A stretch of DNA of 21,418 bases. Source: an uncultured bacterium. GTDB taxonomy: Bacteria > Verrucomicrobiota > Kiritimatiellia > RFP12 > UBA1067. The position numbers and the translations under genes are program-made. Location of the stretch: NCBI GenBank assembly GCA_902779075.1, contig CACZAK010000059.1:1-21418 (forward strand). Direction: 5' to 3'. Every line of letters starts with the position of its first letter. The stretch's first letter is position 1. This document shows, in pieces, positions 4,123 to 19,398 of the stretch. The notes beneath the pieces are model-generated. The model was not told where the DNA came from, made no database searches, and saw nothing but the letters and a program-made list of their open reading frames with translations.

Positions 4123-4707
4123 ATGGCTGATTTTATACAGGCAAACAACATAACCGGGCTGAAGGTCTACGGCCAGCAGCAGGTTGGTTATACTGTCGAC
4201 GGAGAGGCCGGGTGTGACTTCGGCACCGCCGTTGCGCGGGCGTCGATGCAGCGCGCGGTCTCCGTCGAGAGCGCCACAAGTGCGCTCGCGGACGTCGTGC
4301 GCGCGCGTGAGCGGAAGCTGACGGAAATCGGAGAGGCGCTTGCCTACGTTGCGGCGGCTGCTGCGAATTTCACGTCGAAGAGCAAAACGGACGACTCGAC
4401 GAGTTCGCCCGGCCTGGCGACGGCGAAGGACATCCTCGACCGCTACGGCATCGACACCTCGAACATCGTGGTGGTCGATCTTTCCACGTTGGGTGCCGGG
4501 CGTATCGGCGCCATCCAGAACCAGTACGTGGGCAAGCTGCAGACGGACACGCAGTATGCGCTGGACAAGGAGGACAACTACCTCCAGCAGGACATGGTGT
4601 CCCTCCAGAGCTATTTCTCGAAACGCGACCAGGCGCTGTCGATGGCGGCGTCGCTCGTTAAGAAAGTCAACAACACGATGTCGTCCGGCATCCGGGCGAT
4701 TCGCTAG
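4123..4707 (+). CDS. EspA/SseB-like secreted T3SS filament or tip protein, paralog 1
   Basis: This 194-residue protein has no signal peptide and no membrane segment. It is the first gene of the T3SS operon, after a strong AGGAGG site. The predicted layout is an N-terminal helix (about 35-85), a variable middle with ATAKDILDRYGI, and a C-terminal helix (about 140-194). That is the order in EspA and SseB, which build extracellular filaments between needle and host. Family marks shared with the next three genes are YTVDG at 23-27, RAVSVE at 44-49 and LQS-x4-RD at 161-169. It is closest to paralog 2 (both have R-x-R then GEAL at 70-73). The link to EspA rests on layout and the C-terminal motif, not on a database match. 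A translocator or effector role remains possible. Confidence 0.55.
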   Translation: MADFIQANNITGLKVYGQQQVGYTVDGEAGCDFGTAVARASMQRAVSVESATSALADVVRARERKLTEIGEALAYVAAAAANFTSKSKTDDSTSSPGLATAKDILDRYGIDTSNIVVVDLSTLGAGRIGAIQNQYVGKLQTDTQYALDKEDNYLQQDMVSLQSYFSKRDQALSMAASLVKKVNNTMSSGIRAIR

Positions 4708-4721
4708 GGAAGGAGCAGAAA

Positions 4722-5273
4722 ATGCAAACGATAGAAAGAGTCAACGTGGGATCGGACATCCTGAATTCGTGGGGGATCGAGGCGAACGACTACAAGATTG
4801 ACGGCAAGCAGGTCGACTTCCAGGACATCCTCGTGAACATCTCAAAGAAGCGCGCGGTTGCCGTTGAGGGCGAGATCGTTCCGCTTTCCGCTCGCATTCG
4901 CTCGCGCAACGCGCTGATGGACGTCCTGGGCGAGGCGCTGTCGGTCCTGAGCGGCGCGCAGGCGGCCTTCGCGAGCGACGACGCGGGGTCGAAGACGACG
5001 TCCGTATCGCTTTCTGCCAACACGGTGAAGGCGCTGAAAGCCTGCGGGAAGACGAGTTATAGTACGGGTACCCAGAGCCTGTCGAAGAGCACAGTAGAGG
5101 AACTCGTGCAGCTCGTGAAGTCGAAAATCGACTCGTGCAACAACCAGTCCCAGACGGACATGACGCGTCTCCAGTCGCTCGTAGACAGGCGCGACCAGTC
5201 GTTCACGTCTGCGACGGAGCTGATGACGAACGTGAGCGACACGCGCGGCAACCTGATCTCGAACATCGGGTAA
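4722..5273 (+). CDS. EspA/SseB-like secreted T3SS filament or tip protein, paralog 2
   Basis: This 183-residue protein has no signal peptide or membrane segment. It shares YKIDG (24-28), RAVAVE (44-49), GEAL (70-73) and LQS-x4-RD (150-158) with its neighbours. The spacing of these blocks is almost the same as in paralog 1, with a shorter and different middle. The C-terminal helix ends in NLISNIG, comparable with the amphipathic tails of needle and EspA subunits. The start at 4722 follows AAGGAG (4710-4715), and the gap to the previous gene is only 14 bases. Divergence between the two is high, so this is an old duplication and not a recent copy. The function is inferred, as for paralog 1. Confidence 0.55.
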   Translation: MQTIERVNVGSDILNSWGIEANDYKIDGKQVDFQDILVNISKKRAVAVEGEIVPLSARIRSRNALMDVLGEALSVLSGAQAAFASDDAGSKTTSVSLSANTVKALKACGKTSYSTGTQSLSKSTVEELVQLVKSKIDSCNNQSQTDMTRLQSLVDRRDQSFTSATELMTNVSDTRGNLISNIG

Positions 5274-5306
5274 GCTGGCTGGAACTGAAAAGGAAGTGAG
5301 GGTAAA

Positions 5307-5894
5307 ATGAGCAGCTTTGTTACAGAACAGATCGATCTTTCGATGTGCAGCACCCAGACGGGACTGCCTATGACGGCGAACGTCTACACGCTCGAGGGCG
5401 TGACGGCGGCGGACGGCTCGCCGCGGCTGATGTCCATCGGACAGCTTGTGATGGCCATCTGCCTGCAGCGCGCTGCGGCCCTGGAGAGGGACATAGTGGA
5501 CCTCATGGACGCCATCAACCAGAACACGGCGCTCATCAATGGGCTGACGACGGCGGAGTCGGAGCTCGTGAAGGTCGACGTGGGCGGCACGTTCAACGTG
5601 AACGGCACGTTCACGTACGACGGCAACAGCATCACGTACTATGACTTCCTCACGAACAAGGCGGGCATCACGGGTCTTCCCGCGCGGTCGTCCGACGGCA
5701 AGTGGAATTTCGACCAGGTGCAGACGGTGATTTCCGTACTTGAGGACAAGATGGACTCGCTGAACACGATCAGCCAGGACACGCTCATCAACCTGCAGTC
5801 GCTCACGGCGAAGCGCGACCAGACGTACGACCTCGTGTCGAACGCCCTCAAGAGCTTTAACACGGTGCTCGTGGGCAACGCCAACAACATCTAA
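5307..5894 (+). CDS. EspA/SseB-like secreted T3SS filament or tip protein, paralog 3
   Basis: This is a 195-residue protein with YTLEG at 27-31, RAAALE at 55-60 and LQS-x4-RD at 163-171. The segment IGQLVMAICLQRAAALE pairs it with paralog 4 (LAQLVAAVCIHRGASLE), so the four genes form two pairs. Residues 92-113 are a Gly/Asn/Thr-rich, probably beta-hairpin insertion. Residues 113-150 (FLTNKAGITGLP, then FDQVQTVISVLEDKMD) resemble the EspA loop with its INDPRNDISVTG and DLQTVKAAISAK elements. The ribosome site is GTGAGGG before the ATG at 5307. No export signal other than a T3SS-type N-terminus is visible. Confidence 0.55.
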   Translation: MSSFVTEQIDLSMCSTQTGLPMTANVYTLEGVTAADGSPRLMSIGQLVMAICLQRAAALERDIVDLMDAINQNTALINGLTTAESELVKVDVGGTFNVNGTFTYDGNSITYYDFLTNKAGITGLPARSSDGKWNFDQVQTVISVLEDKMDSLNTISQDTLINLQSLTAKRDQTYDLVSNALKSFNTVLVGNANNI

Positions 5895-5905
5895 CGGGCT
5901 GAACG

Positions 5906-6454
5906 ATGATCGAAATCCAGCAGATAGGCACGAACAGGTATGCGCCGGAGGGCGCGAACGCCGTATGCCTCTACTCCATCGAAGGCGCGGACGGGCTCAC
6001 GCTCGCGCAGCTCGTTGCGGCCGTGTGCATCCACCGGGGCGCAAGCCTTGAGGCACGCGCCGTCGGGCGCATGAACAAGATGACGGTGAACAACACCTAT
6101 CTTCAGGCGATGTCGAGCGTATGCTCGCAGATGGCTGGTGGCGCGTCTCTGGACGACGTTGCGAACATCCCGGACAGCTACGAGATGCGCAAGGCCGCGC
6201 GCGGGTGCAACATTAGGACGTTCCTTGAGACGGAATGCGGAATCACAATCTCCGTCACGGGCTGGTCGTATTCGGACCGCATGACGGTGATCAACCAGCT
6301 GAAGACGGCGATGGACAGCGCAAACACGACAAGCCAGGAGGACGCGATCGAGCTGCAGAGCATGATCAACTGGCGTGACATGACGTTCAACACGTCGAGC
6401 AGCGTTGTGACGCGCTACGGCAATTGCGGCTTGAACACGGCGCAGCACATCTAA
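5906..6454 (+). CDS. EspA/SseB-like secreted T3SS filament or tip protein, paralog 4
   Basis: This 182-residue protein carries YSIEG at 23-27, RGASLE at 44-49 and LQS-x4-RD at 150-158. Residues 111-119 (CGITISVTG) recall the DISVTG loop of EspA. It has six cysteines (21, 41, 73, 101, 111, 174), against one in paralog 1, three in paralog 2 and two in paralog 3, which is unusual for a secreted helical subunit. The ribosome site is weak, so its translation may depend on coupling to paralog 3, 11 bases upstream. It ends directly before a chaperone-like gene. The role is inferred from the family and position. Confidence 0.55.
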   Translation: MIEIQQIGTNRYAPEGANAVCLYSIEGADGLTLAQLVAAVCIHRGASLEARAVGRMNKMTVNNTYLQAMSSVCSQMAGGASLDDVANIPDSYEMRKAARGCNIRTFLETECGITISVTGWSYSDRMTVINQLKTAMDSANTTSQEDAIELQSMINWRDMTFNTSSSVVTRYGNCGLNTAQHI

Positions 6455-6459
6455 CGGAC

Positions 6460-6870
6460 ATGGGCGAACGATTTCCAGCGCGGCTCGCACGAGCCATAGG
6501 TTACCCGGACGCCGTCGCGGCGGACGCGGCGCGCGCCGCGTTGCTGGTGGACGGCGAGGAGGTCGTGGCGTCTGACGAGGGCGGGCGCGCCATCCTGCAG
6601 GCGAACGTGGCCGCCACGCCGTCCGACGGAACGCTGGTTTCCCTGGCGGGTTTCGCGGCCGGGCGCATCCTCCGCGAGGAGGCCGTGCTCGCTTACGAGC
6701 CGAAGGCGGACGTGGCGCTCCTCTGGCAGGCTGCGCCGTCCGACGCGGACGCCCTTGCCCTACGCGAATTCTTCCGCTCATTCACGGCTTCCTGGGACTG
6801 GTGGCGCGCGCGCGCGGCCGAGCTTGAAAGCCCACAACCTTCCTTCCCGGAGGTGATGATTCGGCCATGA
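6460..6870 (+). CDS. Class I (CesT/SycE-type) T3SS chaperone-like protein
   Basis: This is a small acidic 136-residue protein with the class I chaperone pattern: an N-terminal helix, a beta core (GTLVSLAGFAAG), a segment with EEAVLAYEPKADVALLWQ, then a C-terminal helix with FFRSFTASWDWWRAR. Such chaperones bind the N-terminus of a secreted substrate in the cytosol and deliver it to SctV/SctN. The ATG at 6460 lies five bases after the preceding stop. The stop overlaps the sctC start (ATGA). Its place after the four filament-like genes suggests they are its clients, although known EspA and SseB chaperones are a different all-helical type. The family call is from layout only. Confidence 0.5.
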   Translation: MGERFPARLARAIGYPDAVAADAARAALLVDGEEVVASDEGGRAILQANVAATPSDGTLVSLAGFAAGRILREEAVLAYEPKADVALLWQAAPSDADALALREFFRSFTASWDWWRARAAELESPQPSFPEVMIRP

Positions 6871-8666
6871 AGCGATTTTTCCTAGCGTTTCTCTTTTTCT
6901 GTGTGGCGGCGTTCGCCGCGCAGGCGGGCTCCACTAACGCGATCCCCTGGCGCGTAGCGAAATACTCGCTCGTCGCGCGCCAGATGGCGTTGCGCGAGGC
7001 GTTTGAGACATTCGGCGTGACCGAGGGACTGAGCGTGGTGATGAGCGAACGCGTGAAGGGGAGCTTCTCCGGCGACTTCGTGGACATGCCGGCGCAGGAG
7101 TTCCTCGAGCGAGTGTGCACGATGCACAACCTGATCTGGTACTACGACGGCGTGGCGCTGTACATCTATTCATCAGGAGAAGTCCTGAGCCAGCTCGTCG
7201 ACCTCGCCTACATGAAGGCAGGCGAGGTGCGTACGATGCTGCGCGAACTCGGCGTGGAGGACAGCCGATTCCCGATCAAGACGACGAGTAACGACGAGCT
7301 TATCATGGTGTCCGGTCCGCCGCGCTACGTGGAGCTCGTGCTTACGATGATCGAGAAGGCGGACCATCTCAAGCAGCTGCGCACGTTCAACGAATTCGAG
7401 ACGCGCGTCTTCCCGCTCGTCAATACGTGGGCGGACAACGTGAACTTCCGTTCGACCGACCCGGAGTCCGGCGCGCAGATTCGCGGCGTGGCCCAGATAT
7501 TGCAGGATCTGATGTCTGTCGGACGCACCAGCCAGTCACGCGACAAGGAGACGAACCGCGCGGACACTGCCGAGGCGAAGCTCCATGATTCGATCGGCAG
7601 CACGGTGTCGCCCATAATCCGCCCCGACAACCGCCTGAACGCGGTGATCGTGCGCGACGTTGCCACGCGCATGCCCATGTACGAGCGCCTGATCCGCCAG
7701 CTCGACGTGCCGCAGCGCCTTGTGGAGATTGCCGTGACGGTGGTGGAGATGACGCGCGACGACTCGCTCGACTGGCAGCTTTCGCTTGCGGTACACGGCG
7801 CACACAGCGAGTTCGACGCCGCCGCCGGGCAGAACGCCGGCAACCTCTTCGCCCCGGCCGCCCTCGCGGGACGCGGCCTTGCCGGCGCGCTTACGTACCT
7901 CGGCGACCACGTGGACGTGAGCACGTCGCTCTCGGCGCTCCGCACGAAGGGCAAGGCCCGTAACATCTCCCGCACGTCGATCCTCACGACGGACAACCTA
8001 GCGGCCGAAATCACCGACATGCAGAGCTACCACGCGCGTGTTGTCGGCACCGAGGTTGCCGCGCTTGAGGAGGTTACGGCAGGCACTAAGCTCTCCATCA
8101 AGCCGCGCGTCATGATTCCCGCCTCGACCAACGAGGTCCTGCGCCTCTGGCTCGCGATGGACCTGCAGGACGGCGGATTCGAGACCGTAAGCGTGGACTC
8201 CATGCCGATGACGCGCCAGAGCACGCTCCAGACGCAGGCCTCCGTGCCGGAAGGCGAGTCGCTCCTGCTTGCGGGTTACTTCCGCGACGTAAACGAAAAC
8301 GCGGGCTGGGGCATCCCCTGGCTGCGCGACATCCCGTGGATCGGATGGCTCTTCGGCGGGGTCTCCATACAGAAGGAGACAGTGCAGCGCCTCTTCATCA
8401 TCACCCCGCACGTGGTCACGGTCGGCCCGTCGGCTGATATCGCACGCGTGCAGTCCGCCCGCAACCGCGACATCACTTACGAGGAGACGCTCTCCCGCGA
8501 CTCCGATGCCGACGACGAGCAACGCAAGGAACGCGAGGCGCGTCTGGAGGAGCAGGACGAGATCCGCACCGAGCAGCACGAGGAGCGCATGGAGAAATTC
8601 AAGAAGGAAGCCAAGGCTCGGCGCGAGGAGCGCAAGCGGGAACGGGAGGCCCGCAAAGACAAGTAG
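6867..8666 (+). CDS. sctC: Outer-membrane secretin of the T3SS
   Basis: This is a 599-residue protein with a signal peptide (hydrophobic 4-18, likely cleavage after AQA at 20). N0/N1-type periplasmic domains cover about 25-165 and a further N-domain about 180-280. The C-terminal secretin barrel runs to about residue 530 and has the marks VPEGESLLLAGYFRD, IPWLRDIPWIGWLFGG and LFIITPHVV. It forms the outer-membrane ring that the needle passes through. The last 56 or so residues (544-599) are almost entirely Glu, Lys, Arg, Asp and Gln, forming a long charged helix in place of the short hydrophobic pilotin-binding tail of many T3SS secretins. The start overlaps the chaperone stop. No pilotin gene is recognised. 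Confidence 0.93.
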   Translation: MKRFFLAFLFFCVAAFAAQAGSTNAIPWRVAKYSLVARQMALREAFETFGVTEGLSVVMSERVKGSFSGDFVDMPAQEFLERVCTMHNLIWYYDGVALYIYSSGEVLSQLVDLAYMKAGEVRTMLRELGVEDSRFPIKTTSNDELIMVSGPPRYVELVLTMIEKADHLKQLRTFNEFETRVFPLVNTWADNVNFRSTDPESGAQIRGVAQILQDLMSVGRTSQSRDKETNRADTAEAKLHDSIGSTVSPIIRPDNRLNAVIVRDVATRMPMYERLIRQLDVPQRLVEIAVTVVEMTRDDSLDWQLSLAVHGAHSEFDAAAGQNAGNLFAPAALAGRGLAGALTYLGDHVDVSTSLSALRTKGKARNISRTSILTTDNLAAEITDMQSYHARVVGTEVAALEEVTAGTKLSIKPRVMIPASTNEVLRLWLAMDLQDGGFETVSVDSMPMTRQSTLQTQASVPEGESLLLAGYFRDVNENAGWGIPWLRDIPWIGWLFGGVSIQKETVQRLFIITPHVVTVGPSADIARVQSARNRDITYEETLSRDSDADDEQRKEREARLEEQDEIRTEQHEERMEKFKKEAKARREERKREREARKDK

Positions 8667-8669
8667 GCC

Positions 8670-9842
8670 ATGCAGCTAGACGCAGCCCAGATTCTTCGCC
8701 AGTCGATCGCGTCGACGACCTTCGACGCAGGAGCGAAGGCAACCGCCCCGGCAGTAGAGTCGGGAGTGGCGATGGGTTTTGGCGTGCAGGTGATGTCGGA
8801 TCCCACGGCGGAGCTGATGGACTCCATGGAGGAGCTGTCCTTCCAGTTCGAGGAGAAGGAGGCGAAGGAAATATCCGAGCGCAAGCTCGGCGACGCAAGG
8901 CGTGCGCCGAACGTGCAGATCGAGGCCATCCAGTCGTGGATGAAGATGATGCCGGACATGCCCGGCGCGGACTTCATCCGCCGCATGTTGCGCCTCCTCC
9001 GCGCGGCGCAGCCGCCGCCCGGCGCCGAACAGCTGCTGAAAATGCTCGGCGAGGGGTCCGGCGACCCGTCCCACCAGTTCGCGATGCTCGACTGCCTCGA
9101 GAAGTCACTTGCGGAGGGGGAGGCGGAGCTGCGTCAGGCCGTGCAGGACGCGAAGGCGCAGCTTGAGCGCACGAAGGGCCCTGAGATGCGGGCAGGCATC
9201 AACGTGGCCGAGGAGATCAACAAGCGCGTCTCTACGCCCGAGGAGATGCACGACCTTCGCGAACTCTACCGCGGCGAGGTCGTCGGCTTCTCGTCGCCGC
9301 AGCACTGCTTCCGCTCCCTGCTCGCATCGCGCGGGGCGGGACACATCGCGGAGGCGCTCGAATTCCTCATTTCGGCGGCGGGAGTGGACCTTCAGGCCGC
9401 AAATCCGTCGCAGTCCGCCGAGCAGTTGCGCAGCATAATCTCCGACCTCCAGTGCGTTGAGGTGCTCCGTACGGTGATGGACCGGCTCGACCGGCTTGTG
9501 GCGCGTCTCCTCAACCAGTTCGGGGAGCGGAGCCTTCTCGACGGCGAGAAGCTCACGGGCCGCGTGATGGACCTCACCGAGCAGCCGTTCGTGTCGTCCG
9601 CGCAGGTGGGCGGCATCATGACGTCGTGCGGCATCCGTGCGCTTCTTGCGCAGATGGACTTCGCGCGCGAGATGCTGGCCGTGTTCCGCGAGCTGTCGCC
9701 GCGCCTGTTCGCGGAGGCGGCTGACCGCTTCAAGCTCACTGCGGCCGCGCAGGAGCTGTTGGAGGAGACGACCGACCGTCTAGCCGAGGAGGAGGAGAAA
9801 GAGGCCGAGAAGCGGCGCAGGGAGGAGAGACGTCAGAAATGA
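8670..9842 (+). CDS. sctW: T3SS gatekeeper (YopN/InvE/MxiC/CopN family)
   Basis: This 390-residue soluble protein lies just after the secretin gene. It is helical throughout. It has the HrpJ/YopN-like N-terminal domain (about 50-250) and a C-terminal TyeA-like part (about 280-370, with GIMTSCGIRALLAQMDFAREMLAVFRELSPRLF). It therefore has the fused form seen in InvE, MxiC and CopN, not the split YopN plus TyeA. Gatekeepers hold back effectors until contact and set the order of secretion by binding SctV. The last 30 residues are an Arg/Glu/Lys-rich tail of the same type as the secretin tail. The following gene overlaps its stop (ATGA) and looks like its chaperone. Confidence 0.8.
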   Translation: MQLDAAQILRQSIASTTFDAGAKATAPAVESGVAMGFGVQVMSDPTAELMDSMEELSFQFEEKEAKEISERKLGDARRAPNVQIEAIQSWMKMMPDMPGADFIRRMLRLLRAAQPPPGAEQLLKMLGEGSGDPSHQFAMLDCLEKSLAEGEAELRQAVQDAKAQLERTKGPEMRAGINVAEEINKRVSTPEEMHDLRELYRGEVVGFSSPQHCFRSLLASRGAGHIAEALEFLISAAGVDLQAANPSQSAEQLRSIISDLQCVEVLRTVMDRLDRLVARLLNQFGERSLLDGEKLTGRVMDLTEQPFVSSAQVGGIMTSCGIRALLAQMDFAREMLAVFRELSPRLFAEAADRFKLTAAAQELLEETTDRLAEEEEKEAEKRRREERRQK

Positions 9843-10228
9843 GGGCTTCCTGGATAGACAGCGCCGTAGAGGAGTTCGGGCGCCACTTCGGTTTTGCGCA
9901 CTTCGAGCTGAACGAGCGCGGGGTGGCTGCTGCGCGCTTCGAGAACGGGGCGTCCGTGGCTGTCGAACATGCGCGCGAGTCGCTGTGCCTCCAGGTGCGC
10001 GTGCCGATGGCGGCGGACGGCGCGTCCGTGCGCAAGCTGCTCGTAGCGGCGCATCCCGGCAACAGGTTCCCGTTCCCGCTCCGCACCGCCTACCTCGCGA
10101 AGACGGGCCAGGCGATATTCCTCGTGAAGTTCCCAGAACGCGACGTGACGGAGACGGCGCTCTGGCAGGTGTTTTCGGAAATGTGGGCGCTCGCGAAGCG
10201 CTTTGGAGGCGACGTCACATGGAATTGA
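9839..10228 (+). CDS. SycN/CesT-like chaperone, probably for SctW
   Basis: This 129-residue protein has the T3SS class I chaperone layout: helix (WIDSAVEEFGRHFGF), beta strands (GVAAARFENGASVAVEH, LCLQVRVPM), a central helix, strands (GQAIFLVKFP) and a final helix (TETALWQVFSEMWALAKRF). In Yersinia the gatekeeper YopN uses SycN and YscB, and sycN lies between tyeA and yscX. Here the gene lies between sctW and sctX, which makes a SycN-like role likely. Its start overlaps the sctW stop and its end overlaps the sctX start by ten bases. Confidence 0.6.
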   Translation: MRASWIDSAVEEFGRHFGFAHFELNERGVAAARFENGASVAVEHARESLCLQVRVPMAADGASVRKLLVAAHPGNRFPFPLRTAYLAKTGQAIFLVKFPERDVTETALWQVFSEMWALAKRFGGDVTWN

Positions 10229-10602
10229 ACCGGGTGACAAGCGGCGTCCGTTTCGATACGGGCATATCGACCGCGGACTGGACGCGCGGGCCGGTTGGGC
10301 AGACGCCCGGCCAGACGCAGGGTCCGCTCCTCCCTGGCTCGACGACCGTCTCGGAGACGCTGAAGTCGCTATTCCCCACGGGCGCCTCGGTGGGCGCCGA
10401 GATAATGAACGCGCTGGCGGCGGCGGGCGGATCGCCTCTCCTCCGCACTGCGCACGGCTTCCGGTCGGCGGCGGTGCGGACGATCCGCACGCTTCGGGGA
10501 AGGAAGGGCGCCAAGGCGGACGCGGCGGCGCGGGAGCTGGAGAACCTGCTGGCGGATACGGAGCTGCTGGACCACTACCGGGCGGCGCTCCTGGAGACAT
10601 GA
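10219..10602 (+). CDS. sctX: SctX (YscX-like) early T3SS substrate
   Basis: This is a 127-residue protein upstream of sctV, the position of yscX in Ysc systems. The centre has LKSLFPTGAS, which matches the LERLYPTAQS stretch of YscX, and the C-terminus has DTELLDHYRAALLE, comparable with the helical end of YscX. The N-terminus is Gly/Pro/Thr-rich and probably disordered, as expected of a secreted protein. YscX is exported early, binds YscY, and is required for the Ysc export apparatus. Its partner yscY is normally next door, but here a candidate lies about 5 kb away at 15419. The ATG at 10219 overlaps the previous gene. Confidence 0.65.
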   Translation: MELNRVTSGVRFDTGISTADWTRGPVGQTPGQTQGPLLPGSTTVSETLKSLFPTGASVGAEIMNALAAAGGSPLLRTAHGFRSAAVRTIRTLRGRKGAKADAAARELENLLADTELLDHYRAALLET

Positions 10603-10620: not shown

Positions 10621-12720
10621 TTGAGCAAGGACTGGACAGGATTTGCGAACGTTTTCAGCAAGTACGGCGATCTCGTGCTTGCGTTCCTCGTCGTCGCGAT
10701 CATCGGCCTCTTGATCATCCCGCTTCCAACGCCGGTGGTGGACCTCCTGATCTCCATCAACCTGACGATATCGACGGTGATGCTGATGCTCTCGCTCTAC
10801 CTGCCGAGGGCGCTCGCGTTCTCCACGTTCCCGTCGATGCTGCTCTTCACCACTCTGTACCGCCTCGCGCTGAACGTCACCACCACGCGACTCATCCTGC
10901 TCAAGGCGAACGCCGGCGAGATCATCTACACGTTCGGCAACTTCGTGGTGGGCGGCAACTTCGTGGTAGGCGCGGTGATCTTCCTCATCATCACGATCGT
11001 GCAGTTCGTCGTGATCGCCAAGGGTTCGGAGCGTGTGTCAGAAGTGGCCGCGCGCTTCACGCTGGACGCTATGCCCGGCAAGCAGATGTCCATCGACGCC
11101 GACATGCGCGCGGGCGCCATCGACCTGAACGAGGCCCGCCAGCGCCGTGCCGAGCTAGCGAAGGAGTCGCAGCTCTACGGCGCAATGGACGGCGCGATGA
11201 AGTTCGTGAAGGGCGACTCCATCGCCGGACTCATCATGACGTCCATCAACATCGTGGGCGGCATCTGCGTGGGCGTGTTCATGAACGGCAAGGACGTGGG
11301 CTGGGCCGTGACCAAGTACGGCATCCTCACGATCGGCGACGGACTCGTCTCGCAGATTCCCGCGCTGCTCGTGTCCATCACCGCCGGCGTGATCGTGACG
11401 CGTGTGGGCGACGAGGGCGCGAAACCCCTCGGCCAGGACATCGTCAACCAGTTCTTCGCCCAGCCGAAGGCCATTCTCCTCGGCGCGCTCATGCTCGTGG
11501 CGATCGGCCTCATTCCAGGGTTCCCGAAGCTCCAGATTTTCGGACTGGCCGCGGCCGTGGGAATCGTGGGGTACGCGCTCGTCTCGCGCATGAAGAAGCG
11601 CAAGGCGCAGGAAGCGGCCGCAGAGGACCCGCTTACGGCGGCGCAGCCGTCCGGCGAGGAGGGCAAGCCGAAGAAGCCGAAGAAGGGCGGCGACGACTTC
11701 GCGATGGTCACGCCGCTCATGGTGGACATCGACGCCTCCATCCGTTCGGCGCTCACCTACGAGGAGCTGAACGACCAGATCATCGGCGTGCGCCGTGCCC
11801 TCTACCACGACCTCGGCGTGCCGTTCCCTGGCATCAACCTGAGCCTCAACGAGACGGTGAAGGACGGCAAGTACCGCATCCTCGTGAACGAGGTGCCCGT
11901 CTCGGAGGGTGTGCTGAACCGCGGGCACCTCCTCGCGCTCGAGACGCCGGAGAACCTCTCCGCCGCCGGAATCCCGTTTACGGAAGGGAAGCGCTTCCTC
12001 GCGGACTACGCGACGTGCTGGGTGGAGGAGTCGCACAAGGCGGACCTCGACGCGGGCTGCATCCGCTACCTCGACATCAACGGCGTGCTTTCGTACCACC
12101 TGTCGGGCGTCCTAAAGCGCTACGCCCACGAGTTCCTCTCGATCCAGGAGACGCGCCTGCTCTTCGACCACATGGAGAAGGAGGCACCCGAGCTCGTGCG
12201 CGAGGTGCTGCGCGTGCTGCCGCTCCAGAAGATCACCGACGTGCTGCAGCGTCTCGTGCAGGAGGGCATCTGCATCCGCGACCTCAAGCAGATCACCCAG
12301 ACGCTCATCGAGTGGGGGCAGAAGGAGAAGGACACCGTCCTCCTCGTCGAGTACGTGCGCAGCGCCCTCAGCCGCTACATCTCCTACAAGTTCAGCGGCG
12401 GCCAGAACATCATCGCCGCCTACCTGCTCGACCCGTCCCTCGAGGAGATGGTGCGCAAGAGCGTGCGCCAGACGTCCGCCGGCAGCTATCTCGCGATGGA
12501 CCCGCAGAACGTCCGCCGGATCATCGGCACGGTCAAATCGACGATCGGCGACCTCGCCAACATACCTCAGAAACCCGTACTGATCGTCTCGGTGGACATC
12601 CGCCGCTACTTCCGCAAGATGATCGAGCGCGAGTACTACGAACTGCCGGTGCTCTCCTTCCAGGAGCTGAGCAGCGAGATCAACATCCAGCCCCTGGGCC
12701 GTCTGAAACTGAAGGGCTAA
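10621..12720 (+). CDS. sctV: T3SS export gate protein (FHIPEP family)
   Basis: This is a 699-residue inner-membrane protein. The N-terminal half has about eight membrane helices from residue 17 to 325, including the conserved loop ERVSEVAARFTLDAMPGKQM at 137-156. A Lys-rich linker (about 325-355) leads to the cytoplasmic nonamer-ring domain, ending in IQPLGRLKLKG. It forms the export gate that receives chaperone-substrate pairs and the gatekeeper. The start is TTG at 10621, supported by GAGG (10608-10611) and by the fit of the N-terminus to SctV proteins. The length is normal for the family (about 680-710). Confidence 0.96.
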   Translation: MSKDWTGFANVFSKYGDLVLAFLVVAIIGLLIIPLPTPVVDLLISINLTISTVMLMLSLYLPRALAFSTFPSMLLFTTLYRLALNVTTTRLILLKANAGEIIYTFGNFVVGGNFVVGAVIFLIITIVQFVVIAKGSERVSEVAARFTLDAMPGKQMSIDADMRAGAIDLNEARQRRAELAKESQLYGAMDGAMKFVKGDSIAGLIMTSINIVGGICVGVFMNGKDVGWAVTKYGILTIGDGLVSQIPALLVSITAGVIVTRVGDEGAKPLGQDIVNQFFAQPKAILLGALMLVAIGLIPGFPKLQIFGLAAAVGIVGYALVSRMKKRKAQEAAAEDPLTAAQPSGEEGKPKKPKKGGDDFAMVTPLMVDIDASIRSALTYEELNDQIIGVRRALYHDLGVPFPGINLSLNETVKDGKYRILVNEVPVSEGVLNRGHLLALETPENLSAAGIPFTEGKRFLADYATCWVEESHKADLDAGCIRYLDINGVLSYHLSGVLKRYAHEFLSIQETRLLFDHMEKEAPELVREVLRVLPLQKITDVLQRLVQEGICIRDLKQITQTLIEWGQKEKDTVLLVEYVRSALSRYISYKFSGGQNIIAAYLLDPSLEEMVRKSVRQTSAGSYLAMDPQNVRRIIGTVKSTIGDLANIPQKPVLIVSVDIRRYFRKMIEREYYELPVLSFQELSSEINIQPLGRLKLKG

Positions 12721-12723
12721 CAC

Positions 12724-13992
12724 GTGAACTATCTGCTCAAAATCGTCCAGGGGGCCAATGCGGGCGCGGAAATCGCGCTCGCCGAGGGGACTGTGACCTT
12801 CGGGTCTGCCGACTCCTGCGACATCGTGCTTGCCGACTCGTCCCTGGCCGCAGAGGCATTTGCCATCGAGACGACGGACACAGGCGTAAGCCTTAAGGAA
12901 CTGCCGGACGGCGAGGCCAAGAAAATCGACCTCTACACGTTATTTTCATTCGGAAACTCGTCCTTCGCCGTCGGCGAGAACGGCGCAGCCTGGCCAGAAC
13001 TGAAGTCGCCCGAACCGCCTCCTCCGCCAGAACAGCCTGCGGCGGACACGGAGACGGACGGCTCCGATACTGCGCCGTCCGCCCCATCGGATACGCCGCC
13101 GCCTTCGACAGACGAGGGGCCGCGTCCTGTCACGGAAGAGCCGCGTCCAACCGAGGCCGAGGGTAAACGCTCGTCGCGGCGAAGCTGCCTCGGGTGTCTG
13201 CTCGTGCTGGTACTCATTTTGGTGTTTTTCGCAGTCGGATATTTCCTGGCATTGCGGTACGGGCGTATATGGGAATCCGTGCCTTTTGTTCGCGAAAAGC
13301 TTGGCACGCCTGCGGTAGAGAACGACTCTCCCGTGGTTGAGAGCGTGTCCCCTGCGGAAGCCCTTGCGGCATGGGTCGCTACGAATGGGCTTGACATGGT
13401 GGAAAAGGACGGCGAGACCGTGATTTTTGGCAATTTCGCGAAGCGCGCGGACCGGCTCACTTTCGCGCAGGATGCATACGAGCGCGACGCGAACCTGATA
13501 CTCGACCTTTCCGATGACGAGACGCTGAAGGCGGGTGTTGAGGAGGTGCTGTTCGTCATAACCGAGGGGCGCACGAAATTGGAGGTGGCGACGAACCGCG
13601 TGGTCAAGCTCGCAGGCCGGGCGCGTTCGCGCGACGAGCTGCTCCAGACAGTGGCGACGATCTGCACGGACGTGAACCGCGTTCGGGTGGTGGACGACAC
13701 GGCGGTGGTGTGCGACGACGGGAAGCGGACGGATGCCCCCACTCGCTACCAGGCGCTTTCGTCGCAGGCTGCGCGCAAGCACCCGTTTATCACGCCGGCT
13801 CCTAGGCCGGGCATGCCCGAACCGAAGTGCCCCGTGGCTGGCGTGATTCTCATGCCGTATCCGTGTCTTGTGCTGCGCGACGGCTCGCGCGCGGCGGAAG
13901 GGTCGATGGTCGGAGAGTTCAAGGTGGAGAAGATCGAGGCGGACAAGGTGACGCTGAAACGCGGAGAGGAGACGGTCACATGGAAACCATGA
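12724..13992 (+). CDS. sctD: Inner-membrane ring protein with cytoplasmic FHA domain
   Basis: This is a 422-residue single-pass protein. The N-terminal FHA-like domain (1-90, with VTFGSADSCDIVLADSSL) faces the cytoplasm and contacts the sorting platform through SctK. A long Pro/Glu/Thr-rich linker spans 95-150. The membrane helix is 156-178, just after an RSSRRSC basic stop. The periplasmic part has BON-type ring-building modules and ends in a small beta domain (GEFKVEKIEADKVTLKRG). With SctJ it forms the inner-membrane ring. The start is GTG at 12724, three bases after the sctV stop. The acidic proline-rich linker is longer than in YscD. Confidence 0.88.
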   Translation: MNYLLKIVQGANAGAEIALAEGTVTFGSADSCDIVLADSSLAAEAFAIETTDTGVSLKELPDGEAKKIDLYTLFSFGNSSFAVGENGAAWPELKSPEPPPPPEQPAADTETDGSDTAPSAPSDTPPPSTDEGPRPVTEEPRPTEAEGKRSSRRSCLGCLLVLVLILVFFAVGYFLALRYGRIWESVPFVREKLGTPAVENDSPVVESVSPAEALAAWVATNGLDMVEKDGETVIFGNFAKRADRLTFAQDAYERDANLILDLSDDETLKAGVEEVLFVITEGRTKLEVATNRVVKLAGRARSRDELLQTVATICTDVNRVRVVDDTAVVCDDGKRTDAPTRYQALSSQAARKHPFITPAPRPGMPEPKCPVAGVILMPYPCLVLRDGSRAAEGSMVGEFKVEKIEADKVTLKRGEETVTWKP

Positions 13993-14280: not shown

Positions 14281-14610
14281 ATGGCAACCTTCATCACAAC
14301 CTCCACGCATCCCGGCACGGGATTGTGCCAGGTCGTCGACAACCAGATGACAATCGAGCGCGTCAATAGCAGCACGAATTTCGTCATCCACCTCGACAAC
14401 GTCTACAACGCGCTCTTCAACGCGGTGGAGACGCTTGAGGATCGTCTGGCGACATCGCTCAAGACGTACCAGGAGCATCCGGACGTGCAGGCGAACCTCC
14501 AGCAGCTGCAGTACGACCTGCAGCAGTGGAACCTCTGCCTCACCACCATGACGAACATCCAGAAGAACATGGCGGACGCATTGTCGTCCATCGCTTCGAA
14601 CATGCGCTGA
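14281..14610 (+). CDS. sctF: T3SS needle subunit
   Basis: This is a 109-residue protein. The C-terminal part (about 67-109, PDVQANLQQLQYDLQQWNLCL, then TNIQKNMADALSSIASNMR) matches the needle-subunit pattern of a P-x-x-L-x-x-L-Q turn followed by a helix that lines the needle channel. The region 34-66 forms the first helix (HLDNVYNALFNAVETLEDRL). Needle subunits are usually 80-90 residues; here about 25 extra N-terminal residues are present. It is flanked by YscE-like and YscG-like co-chaperone genes as in Ysc systems. An A-rich leader and good ribosome site suggest strong translation, as expected for a subunit needed in many copies. Confidence 0.8.
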   Translation: MATFITTSTHPGTGLCQVVDNQMTIERVNSSTNFVIHLDNVYNALFNAVETLEDRLATSLKTYQEHPDVQANLQQLQYDLQQWNLCLTTMTNIQKNMADALSSIASNMR

Positions 14611-14615
14611 GCGCG

Positions 14616-14993
14616 ATGGCCGAAGAAGCGTTTGATCTGCGGCCCGACGAAGCCCGGCTCCTCCTCAACGTCGCCCTCATGGCGACGGGGAAGAACTTTT
14701 TCAAGAGCGCGACGAAGATCCTCGCCGCACTTGAGAAGTTTCGACCCGAGGAGGAGTCCGTGGGCACGGCGAAGGTCGTACTGATGATCAGCCTCGGCGA
14801 ATTCGAGCTGGCGGTCGGCTACATCGACCGCGAGGCGCTCGTCAAGTGGCCGAACTCGGCGATGCTGCGGGCATTCCGCGGCATGGCGCTGATCAGGATG
14901 GGGCGTAAGGACGAAGCGAGGGACTGTCTAGTCGAGGCGGCGCAGTCGGAAGACGAGGCCGCTGCAAACCTCGCTCGCGATTTGTTGGAATGA
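14616..14993 (+). CDS. YscG-like TPR co-chaperone of the needle subunit
   Basis: This is a 125-residue helical protein with TPR-type helix pairs: ARLLLNVALMATGKNFFKSATKIL (about 12-35), VGTAKVVLMISLGEFELAVGYI and SAMLRAFRGMALIRMGRKDEARDCL. YscG is about 115 residues and has the same plan (its start LNVLLAEIALIGTGN aligns with LLLNVALMATGKN here). YscG clamps the needle subunit C-terminus together with YscE. The gene begins six bases after sctF. A TPR chaperone for translocators (SycD class) is an alternative, but those are larger, about 160 residues. Confidence 0.6.
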   Translation: MAEEAFDLRPDEARLLLNVALMATGKNFFKSATKILAALEKFRPEEESVGTAKVVLMISLGEFELAVGYIDREALVKWPNSAMLRAFRGMALIRMGRKDEARDCLVEAAQSEDEAAANLARDLLE

Positions 14994-15006
14994 AGGAGAG
15001 CAAGAA

Positions 15007-15396
15007 GTGCTAGAAGCAGCAGCAATAGAGGCGGTTCGGGCCGCGCAGGCGCCGCAGAGCGTCGCGTACCTGAACGAGCAGCTGGCGACGAACAAGGTCG
15101 CGGACGCAGACGCCGTCAAGGCCTTCCAGGCGGCGATGGGCGTGGGCGGACCCGACCCGATCCCGTTTGCGCAGCAGATCGGCGACACGTGGCGCGTGGC
15201 GCAGGACATGAACCAGGGCATCATGCACCGCATCCACGCCTTGTCGGAGGCGAAGCAGCTCGGCAACACGCCGAGCGTGCTGCAGATGACAGAGCTGCAG
15301 TACGAGGTGGCGAACCTCAGTTTCCAGCAGGAAGTCGTGACGAGCATCGCGAAGAAGGCGAGCAACGCGGTCGAGACGCTGGTTAAGAACGGCTGA
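15007..15396 (+). CDS. sctI: T3SS inner rod protein
   Basis: This is a 129-residue protein. The C-terminal third (SVLQMTELQYEVANLSFQQE, then VVTSIAKKASNAVETLVKNG) fits the YscI pattern of L-Q-x-x-L followed by K-A-x-x-A-x-x-T-L-V-K at the very end. SctI joins the export apparatus to the needle base and takes part in the switch from needle to effector export, with SctP. The start is GTG at 15007, with AAGGAG (14993-14998) well placed in front. The N-terminal 60 residues are Ala-rich and variable. It lies between the YscG-like gene and sctY, near the yscI position. Confidence 0.78.
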   Translation: MLEAAAIEAVRAAQAPQSVAYLNEQLATNKVADADAVKAFQAAMGVGGPDPIPFAQQIGDTWRVAQDMNQGIMHRIHALSEAKQLGNTPSVLQMTELQYEVANLSFQQEVVTSIAKKASNAVETLVKNG

Positions 15397-15418: not shown

Positions 15419-15766
15419 GTGGAAGCGGAAGAGAGACAGCTGATGCTCACGACTGCGTGGCTTTTCGCCCGGCACGGGCAGGGGCCGCGCGCGCGCGTGT
15501 TGTTGGAAGCCGTCGTGGAGGAGGACCCGCGCGACGGCGTGTCCGCCGCCATGCTTGCCGATCTCCTGCTCGCCGAGCACCAGCCCGCCGCCGCGCTCGA
15601 CGTCGTGCGGTCCGCCGAGTTCCCGCCGAACCTGCGCCGCGCCGAGGCTCTTCTCGAGACGCGCGCGCTGCGGATGCTCGGGAAGAATTCCGAGGCAGAT
15701 GCCCGATGGTCGCGGTTCGTGAAGTCCTCCGCCGGATCCAGCCGCGAATGGGTCGTGGGAGGTTAA
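15419..15766 (+). CDS. sctY: SctY (YscY-like) chaperone of SctX
   Basis: This is a 115-residue TPR-type helical protein. Its N-terminus (RQLMLTTAWLFARHGQGPRARVLLEAVVEEDPRDG) aligns well with YscY (RQQEFLLLNGWLQLQCGHAERACILLDALLTLNPEH). Later stretches (LADLLLAEHQPAAALDVV and LETRALRMLGKNSEADARWSRF) also follow the YscY plan. YscY binds YscX in the cytosol and both are needed for Ysc assembly. In Yersinia yscY follows yscX; here it lies between sctI and sctJ, about 4.8 kb from sctX. The start is GTG at 15419; an internal ATG at 15443 is less likely. A second YscG-like chaperone is the main alternative. Confidence 0.6.
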   Translation: MEAEERQLMLTTAWLFARHGQGPRARVLLEAVVEEDPRDGVSAAMLADLLLAEHQPAAALDVVRSAEFPPNLRRAEALLETRALRMLGKNSEADARWSRFVKSSAGSSREWVVGG

Positions 15767-15798: not shown

Positions 15799-16395
15799 AT
15801 GAAGACAATTTGGTTGAGGGCGGCGTGCTGTGCCGCGCTGATGCTCCTCGCGGGGTGCGAGGAGGAGACGACGCTCTACTCGCAGCTAGAGGAGCGTCAG
15901 GCGAACGCAATAGTCGCCGAATTGAAGGCGCACGACATTTCCTGCCGCAAGACGCCCGGCGAGGAAGGCACGTGGAACGTGATGATCGGCGAAAGCAAGT
16001 TCGCGACGGCTGTGGAGCTGCTCGAACAGAAGGGACTTCCCCGCCGCCAGTACCAGGGCGTTGCCGAGAGTTTCAAGAAGACGGGAATGGTGTCCTCGCC
16101 CTCCGAGGAGCGCATCCGGTTCATGGACGCGCTCGCGCAGGATCTCTCCCGCACGATTTCGCAGATCGAGGGCGTAGTTGACGCGCGCGTGCACGTGGTG
16201 CTGCCCGAGAACGACCCGTTCGCCAAGCACGCGAAACCGAGTTCCGCCGCCGTCGCAATCCGCCACCGCTACGACGTGGACATGGCCGATTTCGTCCCCC
16301 AGATCAAGAGCCTCGTGAAGAACGCGATCGAGGGCCTTGACTACTCCAAGATTTCCGTAACACTGTTCCGAGATTCACCTCCGAAGAAGAAATGA
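15799..16395 (+). CDS. sctJ: Inner-membrane ring lipoprotein of the T3SS
   Basis: This 198-residue lipoprotein has a signal sequence and lipobox (LLAGC, Cys20). It has two ring-building motifs: the first (about 24-80, LYSQLEERQANAIVAELKAHDI with the ISCRKTP strand) and the second (about 105-190, with SQIEGVVDARVHVVLPENDPF, SSAAVAIRH and IKSLVKNAIEGLDYSKISV). It forms the periplasmic 24-mer ring with SctD. SctJ proteins commonly have about 240 residues and end in a membrane helix and a short cytoplasmic tail. Here the protein stops at DSPPKKK straight after the second ring domain, so the C-terminal helix is missing. The start overlaps nothing and follows AAGG. The stop overlaps the sctK start. 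Confidence 0.93.
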   Translation: MKTIWLRAACCAALMLLAGCEEETTLYSQLEERQANAIVAELKAHDISCRKTPGEEGTWNVMIGESKFATAVELLEQKGLPRRQYQGVAESFKKTGMVSSPSEERIRFMDALAQDLSRTISQIEGVVDARVHVVLPENDPFAKHAKPSSAAVAIRHRYDVDMADFVPQIKSLVKNAIEGLDYSKISVTLFRDSPPKKK

Positions 16396-17030
16396 CGCAG
16401 CCGATTGACATGAAGGACGCACGGGCACTCGTGCGCGACGAACGGCGATGGCCGCTCGTGCGCGAGTTCCTGTTCGGTTTCGCGTCGCTCGCCGACGCCG
16501 CACGCGTGGACGCGGCCTGCGGCGACGGCACGGCTGCGCGCCGCGGCTTGCCGCGCGTGGACGCCTTCGTGTGCGAACGCCTCGGCGTGACGCCCCTCTT
16601 CCATGCCTTTCCCGCCGAAGACGGCAGCAGACTGCTGTTGCTTGCCGCCGAATCCTACCAGAACATCGGGCTTTGGCTTGCAGCCCTCGCGCGTGCGGAC
16701 GAGTTGCGCAACGTCATTTCCGGCGCGCGCGTGCGCGAGCTGAAGGCCGCGTTGCCGGGCGTCTATCCCGACGTGCTGAAGGTCGCCCCCTATTTCCACA
16801 AGTGGAAACTGCCGGCGTCGGACGGCGACGACTTCGCCGTGAACGGACTCCGTTACCTCGCAACGGTGCTGAAGGACCTGCCTGCGGGGTTGCTCGATAG
16901 ACAGCGCCTGCGTTATCCCGTTGAGCGGGAGGGCGGTTTTGCGCCGCTCGACGGCGAGGTGTCGCTGGCGGAGGTTTCCCGGCTCATGCAGATTCAATTT
17001 CCAAAGGAGTATGCGCTATGCTGCTCGTGA
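16392..17030 (+). CDS. sctK: Sorting-platform protein SctK
   Basis: This is a 212-residue soluble protein between sctJ and sctL, the yscK position. The marks are a central segment with LLLLAAESYQNIGLWLAALARADELRNVISGARVRELK and PDVLKVAPYF, typical of the SctK/YscK group, in which a helix pair precedes the conserved YxFLLxxAP-like motif. SctK bridges the cytoplasmic FHA domain of SctD to the SctQ pods. SctK sequences are weakly conserved, so the call rests partly on order. It overlaps sctJ (ATGA) and sctL (by 13 bases). Confidence 0.68.
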   Translation: MTQPIDMKDARALVRDERRWPLVREFLFGFASLADAARVDAACGDGTAARRGLPRVDAFVCERLGVTPLFHAFPAEDGSRLLLLAAESYQNIGLWLAALARADELRNVISGARVRELKAALPGVYPDVLKVAPYFHKWKLPASDGDDFAVNGLRYLATVLKDLPAGLLDRQRLRYPVEREGGFAPLDGEVSLAEVSRLMQIQFPKEYALCCS

Positions 17031-17575
17031 AAAAGGACACATTCTCGCTTGAATCGGCCTCGCGTCTGGTGAAGGCCGCAGACGTCTCCGCCGTCGCGAA
17101 AATCGACGAGGTGATGAAGGCCGCCCATGACGAGGGCTACGACAAGGGCATCCAGGACGGCAAGATGGAGATCACGATGCAGAAGCTCGATCTCCTGGAA
17201 AGTTCCGTCCAGTACATGGAGAGCGTTGAGGACAAGATGTGCGGCATCGTCCTCAAGGCGTTGCGCAAGTGTGTGGACGAGATCGGCGACGAGGAACTCG
17301 TAGTGCAGGTCACGAAGAAGGCGATGCGCGCCATCGTGCGCAACCAGCAGCAGATCACAGTGCGCGTGAGCACCCGGATGGTGCCAGTGGTGAAGGCCAG
17401 GATACAAGACATACTGAAGGACTTTCCCTCGGTCAACTTCATGGAGGTCGTGGAGGACGGCAAGCTCGACGACCGCGCATGCGTGGTGGAGACGGCTGCC
17501 GGCACGGTGGACGCGTCCGTGGACGCGCAGATCGCCGCCATAGAAAAGTCAATCAGGAAGAATTTCGCGAAGTAG
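17018..17575 (+). CDS. sctL: ATPase-regulating stator SctL
   Basis: This is a 185-residue FliH/YscL-family protein. An N-terminal helical part (about 25-75, with the DEGYDKGIQDGKMEIT coil) leads to a C-terminal globular part with RVSTRMVPVVKARIQDIL, VEDGKLDDRACVVETAAGTVDASVDAQIAAIEKSI. The last stretch is the hallmark C-x-x-E-T-x-x-G-x-x-D-A-S-x-x-x-Q-x-x-x-I-E pattern of FliH/SctL. It connects the SctN hexamer to SctQ spokes and limits ATP hydrolysis. A strong ribosome site, AAGGAG (17004-17009), lies inside the end of sctK. The next gene starts three bases after its stop. Confidence 0.9.
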   Translation: MLLVKKDTFSLESASRLVKAADVSAVAKIDEVMKAAHDEGYDKGIQDGKMEITMQKLDLLESSVQYMESVEDKMCGIVLKALRKCVDEIGDEELVVQVTKKAMRAIVRNQQQITVRVSTRMVPVVKARIQDILKDFPSVNFMEVVEDGKLDDRACVVETAAGTVDASVDAQIAAIEKSIRKNFAK

Positions 17576-17578
17576 GAA

Positions 17579-18904: not shown

Positions 18905-19398
18905 TGGCATACGCACTCGAGAGCATGCTGCGCATCCGCGTGATGCGCGAAGACCGGGCGGGGAAAGACCTCGTCTCGGCCCGGCATGCCCGCGAGGTGG
19001 CACAGGTGGAACTCGATTCGCGGAAGCGGAAGCTGGACGCCTACGCGCAGACGAAGGAAGAGCGTCGCGACCGGGTGTTCGACACGATTCTGGGACGTCC
19101 CGTGCCGCGGGACGAAATCGACCGCGTGCGGACGGCCATTTCGCAGATCGACGAGGAGGGCGTGCTGCTCACGGATGGAGTCACCCGCGCCAAAGCGGAC
19201 CTTGAAACGCGGGAGCAGGAAGCGGAGAAGGCGCACGGACGTTTCGTCGCGGCCGTGAAGGAACGGGCAAAGGTGTCGCAGCACCGTGAAATATGGGCGG
19301 AGGAGGAACGCCGGATGCAGGAAATGCGCGCCGACGCCGAGATGGAAGAGTTTACAGGAAGGAAGATGACCGATGATGATTCCGACGATTTCGATTGA
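18904..19398 (+). CDS. sctO: T3SS stalk protein SctO (YscO/FliJ family)
   Basis: This is a 164-residue protein that is almost one long charged coiled coil (about 5-145), as expected of the FliJ-like stalk that sits in the SctN hexamer and touches SctV. It starts [19 protein letters not shown], typical of SctO, and ends with an acidic tail (DDDSDDFD). The family has little sequence conservation, but the size, coil and position between sctN and sctP fit. The end overlaps the sctP start by 26 bases. Confidence 0.75.
   Translation: MAYALESMLRIRVMREDRAGKDLVSARHAREVAQVELDSRKRKLDAYAQTKEERRDRVFDTILGRPVPRDEIDRVRTAISQIDEEGVLLTDGVTRAKADLETREQEAEKAHGRFVAAVKERAKVSQHREIWAEEERRMQEMRADAEMEEFTGRKMTDDDSDDFD

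What the first reader, a model, noticed from the sequence alone, without database searches (positions are those of the whole stretch)
4123..6454. Four tandem EspA/SseB-like paralogs: a possible multi-subunit T3SS filament
All four proteins share Y-x-[VIL]-[DE]-G near the N-terminus, an R-[AG]-x-[AS]-[VL]-E block 20-28 residues later, and L-Q-S-x(4)-R-D about 20-30 residues from the C-terminus. The middles differ. They fall into two pairs (1 with 2, 3 with 4). EspA and SseB systems are usually built from one filament protein. Four divergent copies at the head of an Ysc-type operon suggest a mixed or segmented filament, or several tip proteins, which I do not know as a described arrangement. The EspA link is from layout, not a search.
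Basis: partly seen in the sequence, partly recalled or inferred. Interest (0 to 1): 0.85.

Follow-up and report, generated by a model that had tools for sequence, protein, structure and literature searches.

The report
Four-protein tip set of injection machine
Gut bacteria of the Kiritimatiellae and their kin carry an injection machine whose outer tip or filament, normally built from one protein, appears to be built from a conserved set of four related proteins; a similar four-gene set was noted before in one other bacterium.

Summary
Four tandem genes (4123-6454) encode four related proteins in two pairs (P1+P2, P3+P4), each with two long helices around a variable middle.

They are four old, separate lineages. 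Among 76 loci fetched with a P3 profile, 44 of the 50 with room on both sides keep all four; in 59 relatives, 21 of 26 genomes with any member have all four. In relatives the usual order is chaperone - SseC-type translocator - second membrane protein - P1-P2-P4-P3 - CesT-like chaperone - SctC-SctW-SctX-SctV, which is where the tip/filament gene (SctA: EspA, SseB, LcrV) sits in known systems.

One locus has P1 and P2 fused in one protein. Some P3 copies carry a large middle insert, as variable flagellins do.

The arrangement is not wholly new: four EspA homologues in two gene pairs are in print for Chromobacterium violaceum. Mixed versus segmented assembly is untested.

The parts
4123..4707 (+). 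P1: EspA-like helix-middle-helix protein, 194 aa; AGGAGG ribosome site upstream
   Evidence: model: helices 33-80 and 133-193, mean pLDDT 73; EspA profile, E 0.0032 at best, in 4 of 38 relatives
4722..5273 (+). P2: paralogue of P1, 183 aa; fused to P1 in one relative (L115)
   Evidence: not modelled
5307..5894 (+). P3: 195 aa; duplicated and carrying large middle inserts in some relatives
   Evidence: model: helices 44-88 and 135-194, mean pLDDT 80.6; needle profile, E 1.4e-4 at best, in 19 of 58 relatives
5906..6454 (+). P4: paralogue of P3, 182 aa
   Evidence: (needle profile, E 8.7e-5 at best, in 14 of 47); not modelled
6460..6870 (+). P5: probable CesT-type chaperone; also present in G017, which has no quartet
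   Evidence: CesT hits below cut-off in both relatives scanned (20.9 and 14.7 bits of 22); nothing for the window copy
6867..8666 (+). SctC secretin
   Evidence: TIGR02516, 348 bits over cut-off 238
8670..9842 (+). SctW gatekeeper with TyeA part
   Evidence: TIGR02568 and TIGR02511 over cut-off
9839..10228 (+). SycN-type chaperone
   Evidence: PF21665 over cut-off
10228..10602 (+). SctX (YscX-like)
   Evidence: TIGR02502, 29.9 bits of 30
10621..12720 (+). SctV export gate
   Evidence: TIGR01399 over cut-off
12724..13992 (+). SctD
   Evidence: TIGR02500, 73 bits of 86
14281..14610 (+). SctF needle subunit: the system has its own needle
   Evidence: PF09392, 30.7 bits over cut-off 29.4; the NCBIfam needle model is not passed (16.7 of 41.7)
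14616..15396 (+). SctY-like TPR protein (14616-14993) and SctI inner rod (15007-15396)
   Evidence: below cut-offs, right place
15419..15766 (+). second SctY-like protein
   Evidence: NF052415, 49.9 bits of 70
15862..18904 (+). SctJ (15862-16395, over cut-off), SctK by position only (16392-17030), SctL (17018-17575, below cut-off), SctN ATPase (17579-18904, over cut-off)
18904..19398 (+). SctO-like stalk protein
   Evidence: FliJ profile, 21 bits of 50; position
19373..21418 (+). repeat-rich ORF in SctP (needle ruler) position, open at window end
   Evidence: translation; name from position only

Best explanation
P1-P4 are four subunits of the extracellular needle extension (SctA position) of a Ysc-like type III secretion system of gut Kiritimatiellae and kin. 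They are exported after the needle. They pack through two long helices, whose length is nearly constant, into a hollow filament or elongated tip on the SctF needle, with the variable middle facing outward, and they hold the SseC-type translocon against a eukaryotic cell, perhaps rumen protists or the animal host. P1+P2 and P3+P4 are the natural partner pairs. P3 is probably the main exposed subunit, since it is the one that is duplicated most and gains large middle inserts. Shown: paralogy, the pairs, retention as a set, the place beside translocon and machine genes in relatives, two-helix prediction for P1 and P3. Inferred: secretion, polymerisation, co-assembly, order in the filament, target cell.
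For: Place: in relatives the order is cc269 - LcrH-like TPR chaperone - SseC translocator (PF04888, E 2e-16 in L038) - T583 - P1-P2-P4-P3 - P5 - SctC - SctW - SycN - SctX - SctV. Translocon genes lie upstream in 35 of 52 loci with 2.5 kb or more upstream; P5/SctC/SctW lie downstream in 27 of 56 with 2.5 kb or more downstream; SseC and SctC are both on the fetched DNA in 10 of 76. In G001, nearest to the window, the translocon genes sit at another locus (L162). Co-occurrence over 59 relatives: quartet members in 26, SctC over cut-off in 22, both 21 (Fisher p 2e-10); SseC in 20, both 19 (p 8e-9). Retention: all four in 21 of 26 genomes with any member (my reading of bit scores) and in 44 of 50 P3-bearing loci with room on both sides (58 of 76 in all). 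Fold: two long helices in both models. The C-terminal block is 60 residues in 42/42 P1, 42/43 P2, 48/50 P3 and 47/47 P4; the middle is 24-37% identical against 50-68% for the C-terminal block, over 435 pairs of 30 loci. P1-P2 fusion protein in L115. P3 forms of 321-338 aa that keep both ends. Weak profile hits of the right kind: needle PF09392 is the commonest family in P3 (19 of 58) and P4 (14 of 47) relatives, EspA PF03433 the commonest in near P1 relatives (4 of 38). No LcrV or IpaD-type tip in 59 relatives, though no control genome rang.
Confidence: 0.65

Rival explanations
1. A mixed, non-filamentous needle tip: the four proteins form one small ring or cap, as LcrV or IpaD does with about five copies of one protein.
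For: Same gene place; the machine has parts that I recall as Ysc-type (SctX, SctY, SycN, TyeA; profile hits), and tips are mostly pentameric (PMC10333785 passages). Four co-kept subunits suit a fixed ring.
Against: Size 182-195 aa and a bare two-helix plan resemble EspA more than tips of about 290-340 aa (sizes recalled). No LcrV or IpaD profile match in 59 relatives, without a positive control. Extra and enlarged P3 copies suit a polymer.
Confidence: 0.15
2. Only one or two of the four (P3, or P1) make the filament; the others are assembly factors or intracellular partners, such as built-in chaperones.
For: Some loci or genomes do without part of the set: L103, L106, L119 and others, G022 with P1 only. 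That lone members at fetched loci are P3 is partly by design, since the loci were sought with P3. EspA needs a chaperone that pairs with its coiled coil (PMC5073101 passages).
Against: All four share the two-helix frame and the motif set, unlike a filament protein with an unrelated chaperone; P5 already looks like a chaperone.
Confidence: 0.12
3. The four are secreted effectors or translocator accessories, not structural.
For: Genes beside translocators; several relatives have giant repeat proteins near the set.
Against: Nearly constant helix lengths and the four-way set kept in most relatives; no effector domain over cut-off in P1-P4 (one P3 relative has an Effector_1 hit at E 0.0086); needle- and EspA-profile trends instead.
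Confidence: 0.08

Closest known systems
EspA of attaching-and-effacing E. coli (Pfam PF03433)
   Same: About 190 aa (recalled), C-terminal coiled coil needed for polymerisation (PMC5073101 passages), gene beside the translocators; the fold alignment spans 153 residues of a 174-residue EspA chain.
   Different: One gene there, four here; no profile match over cut-off here; the structural score does not stand out.
Chromobacterium violaceum CseB1-CseB4 (Cpi-2 by recall)
   Same: [quoted passage not shown] in each pair a short one and a long one with a central insert; heterodimers were proposed (PMC1084347 passages). Here too: two pairs by descent, and in L110, L113, L116 and L123 a normal-length P3 lies next to or near a long P3.
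   Different: A proteobacterium, EspA homologues by sequence. Here the four are deep lineages kept in three families of one order and in contigs labelled Victivallales and Lentisphaeria, outside the EspA profile. I could not fetch CseB sequences, so common origin is untested.
SseB of Salmonella SPI-2
   Same: Listed with EspA-like proteins in PMC1084347; filament role and size recalled.
   Different: One SseB is listed there; no match to the EspA/SseB profile over cut-off here.
LcrV/PcrV and IpaD/SipD needle tips
   Same: SctA position, coiled-coil core (PMC10333785 passages).
   Different: Larger (recalled), mostly a pentamer of one protein; no profile match.
Flagellin and flagellar axial proteins
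   Different: No flagellin profile match; different machine.

Membership tests
EspA (PF03433) | Match to the Pfam profile over its cut-off | tested here: not met
   No match at E <= 5 for P1-P4; 0 of 59 relatives over cut-off, sub-threshold hits not at the quartet contigs; best P1 relative E 0.0032
EspA-type SctA | Two long helices around a variable middle, about 190 aa | tested here: met
   Models of P1 and P3; conservation by region for all four; P2 and P4 not modelled, linked by profile comparison
EspA-type SctA | Structural match to the EspA filament subunit | tested here: inconclusive
   [not shown]
EspA-type SctA | Gene beside the translocator and chaperone genes | tested here: met
   35 of 52 relatives' loci with room upstream; not in the window itself, where the upstream neighbours are housekeeping genes and the nearest relative has the translocon elsewhere
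EspA-type SctA | Polymerises into a hollow filament on the needle | not testable with these tools
   Needs electron microscopy
EspA-type SctA | Dedicated chaperone that holds the subunit before export | tested here: inconclusive
   P5 is CesT-like below cut-off and is also present in G017, which has no quartet
LcrV / IpaD tip | Match to PF04792 or PF06511 | tested here: inconclusive
   No match for P1-P4 at E <= 5; 0 of 59 relatives, but no control genome rang
SctF needle (PF09392) | Match over cut-off (29.4 bits) | tested here: not met
   P1-P4: none. Weak hits in 19 of 58 P3 and 14 of 47 P4 relatives (best E 8.7e-5, while an SctF at E 2e-5 scores 25.1 bits, so these lie below cut-off). The window has a separate SctF
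Type III secretion system | SctC, SctV, SctN and SctJ over their cut-offs | tested here: met

The most novel reading that the evidence does not exclude
The injection machine ends in a four-subunit filament: either P1+P2 and P3+P4 heterodimers polymerise together, or each paralogue fills its own zone (needle junction, shaft, shaft with exposed domain, cap that meets the translocon), as axial proteins do in the flagellum. This would be a second, older origin of the multi-EspA plan sketched for C. violaceum.
Probability: 0.35. Interest if true: 0.85.

Novelty: new variant of a known kind. Interest (0 to 1): 0.6.

Why it matters
So far as I know, every well-studied injection machine has a tip or filament made of one protein. 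A set of four deep paralogues kept together across uncultured gut bacteria would make the heterodimer idea proposed for EspA filaments (PMC1084347, passages) testable, and would show how a one-protein polymer becomes a multi-part appendage. It also points to a little-studied injection system in rumen bacteria: one rumen study linked T3SS genes to methane yield and assigned part of them to unidentified ruminal species (PMC5549432, passages).

Tried and rejected
Pfam, NCBIfam and PHROGs scans of P1-P4 gave no family over cut-off. PDB sequence profiles of the P3 and P1 families found nothing (best E 0.74 and 1, unrelated). DUF2443 hit of P3 (E 0.0036, 17.8 of 25 bits): recurs in only 4 of 58 relatives, treated as chance. 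The VIA list is a mix of long helices (Rad50, prefoldin, IpaB, flagellins), so I do not use rank as evidence. hhalign of each of P1-P4 against 13 other families of these operons (SctF, SctI, SctW, SctE, T583, cc269, LcrH, P5, SycN, SctX, SctY, sE, SctD): none convincing; SctJ, SctK, SctL, SctN and SctO were not compared. The third large protein search (P2 alignment, E up to 10; 1043 hits, 120 listed) showed only P2-like proteins in the rows listed, none labelled EspA. Literature: in the rows listed by searches I saw no title on a Kiritimatiellae injectisome tip; several of these lists were capped (69: 15 of 29; 74: 8 of 44; 93: 10 of 59; 99: 15 of 125), and the five papers of one search were not opened. 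PMC1084347 came up as the C. violaceum precedent. PMC7812819 (EspA filament structure) is not held.

Bias to tell: the 76 loci were fetched with a P3 profile, so each holds P3 by design and sets without P3 would be missed; the four separate genome searches do not have this bias. The genomes are related and incomplete, so the Fisher values overstate independence.

Rows dropped: A1 has 58 rows chosen from the 120 listed of 433 hits, A2 38 of 104. A3-A6 hold only ORFs of the window and L056-L131 with a stop, 140-260 aa, score 100 or more, and under 80% identity to a kept row; so the long P3 forms and the L115 fusion are not in those alignments. The per-genome 'strong' calls (21 of 26) were read by eye from bit scores; G014's P4 is cut by a contig end.

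Full report
What is there. The window carries a type III secretion operon on the + strand. After guaA, an epmA-like gene (both named from the sequence) and a phosphomannomutase-like gene (below cut-offs) come four genes, P1-P4, at 4123-6454. They are followed by a probable chaperone (P5), SctC, SctW, a SycN-type chaperone, SctX, SctV, SctD, SctF, SctI, SctJ, SctL, SctN and an SctO-like gene (some below cut-off, see parts). The gaps between P1, P2, P3, P4 and P5 are 14, 33, 11 and 5 bases by the coordinates. P1 has a full AGGAGG ribosome site. Named relatives of P3 are from Kiritimatiellae bacteria. The window's own genome is not held; the nearest held genome is G001, with half of the window's sampled words.

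The observation. BLASTP of single pairs gives 27% identity for P1-P2 and P3-P4 and 25% for P2-P3. Profile comparison joins all four. The tree gives four groups and the two pairs.

How widely the set is kept. A profile of P3 found 76 loci among genome contigs whose titles name Kiritimatiellae, Verrucomicrobia, Victivallales and Lentisphaerae, or only 'uncultured bacterium', many from rumen and gut. Every one of these holds P3 by design. Reading them with profiles of all four: 58 of 76 hold all four; of the 18 with fewer, 12 lack room on one side. Of the 50 with at least 1.5 kb before and 0.6 kb after the cluster, 44 hold all four. The six that do not are L100 and L103 (P4-P3), L106 and L119 (P2-P4-P3), L124 and L125 (P3). 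The order is P1-P2-P4-P3 in 44 of the 58, and P1-P2-P3-P4, as in the window, in 6. In 59 genomes related to G001, 26 have a member, from three of the six families sampled; 21 of the 26 have all four by strong hits. The other five are G005, G013 and G023 (fragments), G022 (P1 only) and G035 (no P1). This search does not depend on P3.

Where it sits. The full order in relatives is: coiled-coil gene cc269, TPR chaperone of the LcrH kind, an SseC-family translocator, a larger protein with a hydrophobic stretch (T583, no Pfam family), then P1-P2-P4-P3, P5, SctC, SctW, SycN, SctX, SctV, SctD, SctF, SctI. The set thus lies between translocon and machine, which is where espA/sseB/lcrV genes belong in known systems (general knowledge). 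Translocon genes are upstream in 35 of 52 loci with room, P5/SctC/SctW downstream in 27 of 56 with room, and 18 of 76 show neither. In the window's lineage the translocon genes are at another place: in G001 they lie together at L162. Presence goes with SctC (21 of 26 against 1 of 33, p 2e-10) and with SseC (19 of 26 against 1 of 33, p 8e-9); the genomes are incomplete and related, so these p-values overstate independence. G017 has SctC and machine genes but neither the quartet nor an SseC match, so the two may be lost together; one case only.

Shape. AlphaFold models of P1 and P3 show two long helices (33-80 and 133-193; 44-88 and 135-194) with a small middle part (mean pLDDT 73 and 81, pTM 0.53-0.54, so the relative packing is uncertain). 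In all four proteins of the window the N-terminal block spans 53 residues and the C-terminal block 60. Across relatives the C-terminal block has 60 residues in 42 of 42 P1, 42 of 43 P2, 48 of 50 P3 and 47 of 47 P4. The N-terminal block has 53 residues in 42 of 42 P1, 35 of 43 P2 and 37 of 47 P4 (its first 48 residues, 33-80 in P1 and P2 and 31-78 in P4, show no length change in any row), but it varies in P3 rows. The middle ranges from 17 to 68 residues and is the least conserved part. Subunits that share a helical lattice would keep such a frame; this is an inference.

Two natural experiments. In L115 P1 and P2 are one 364-residue protein, P1 over 1-182 and P2 over 179-363. Fusions of this kind often join proteins that work together (general knowledge); it is a single case in an assembled contig. 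P3 has long forms of 321-338 residues, with the insert in the middle and both ends kept, in L110, L113, L116, L123, L127, L129 and L130. In L110, L113, L116 and L123 a normal-length P3 lies next to or near the long one. This recalls variable flagellins and the short-long pairs of C. violaceum.

Known or new. The review PMC10333785 (passages) describes SctA as a mostly pentameric tip, or in EPEC/EHEC a filament. The LEE analysis PMC1084347 (passages) lists CseB1-4 of C. violaceum, four EspA homologues encoded by two adjacent gene pairs, each pair short plus long, and proposes heterodimers. That is a clear precedent for the arrangement. New here, so far as the searches named under Tried and rejected go, are the bacterial group, the depth and regularity of the set, the fusion, and a machine with SctX, SctY, SycN and TyeA parts joined to an EspA-like set.

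Verdict. A real, conserved four-part SctA-like set; mixed, paired or segmented assembly remains a prediction. Interest 0.6: the precedent lowers the surprise, the set makes the heterodimer idea testable.

Noticed in passing
window 19373-21418 (+): ORF of at least 682 residues in SctP (needle-length ruler) position, open at the window end, made largely of repeats like PVVAEAPVAVERV. If it is SctP, repeat number could set needle length. Not in the list because it has no stop.
   Followed up: partly
window 14281-14610: SctF has about 37 residues before the needle domain (PF09392 matches 38-108), which I recall as unusual for a needle subunit.
   Followed up: no
L038:9486-11237 (-) and other loci: T583, mostly about 560-620 aa, between the SseC translocator and P1, with a hydrophobic stretch; no Pfam family over cut-off in the five copies scanned: a candidate second translocator of a new family.
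   Followed up: partly
L046:8415-16001, L048:8605-14838, L053:4202-10240, L081:14224-20609, L122:1384-7626, L058:2469-8537: Giant ORFs (about 2000-2500 aa) near the quartet; the one scanned (L053) has Listeria-Bacteroides and weak beta-helix repeats. Possible secreted effectors or adhesins.
   Followed up: partly
G017 (L163): A genome rated 100% complete with T3SS machine genes and P5 but no quartet and no SseC match: perhaps a machine with another tip or another job.
   Followed up: partly
window 10228-10602, 14616-14993, 15419-15766: SctX-like and two SctY-like genes (all below cut-off), which I recall as Ysc-type parts, in a Kiritimatiellae system.
   Followed up: no
L103:10571-13735: Glycine-rich protein with a signal-peptide-like start directly after P4-P3.
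   Followed up: no
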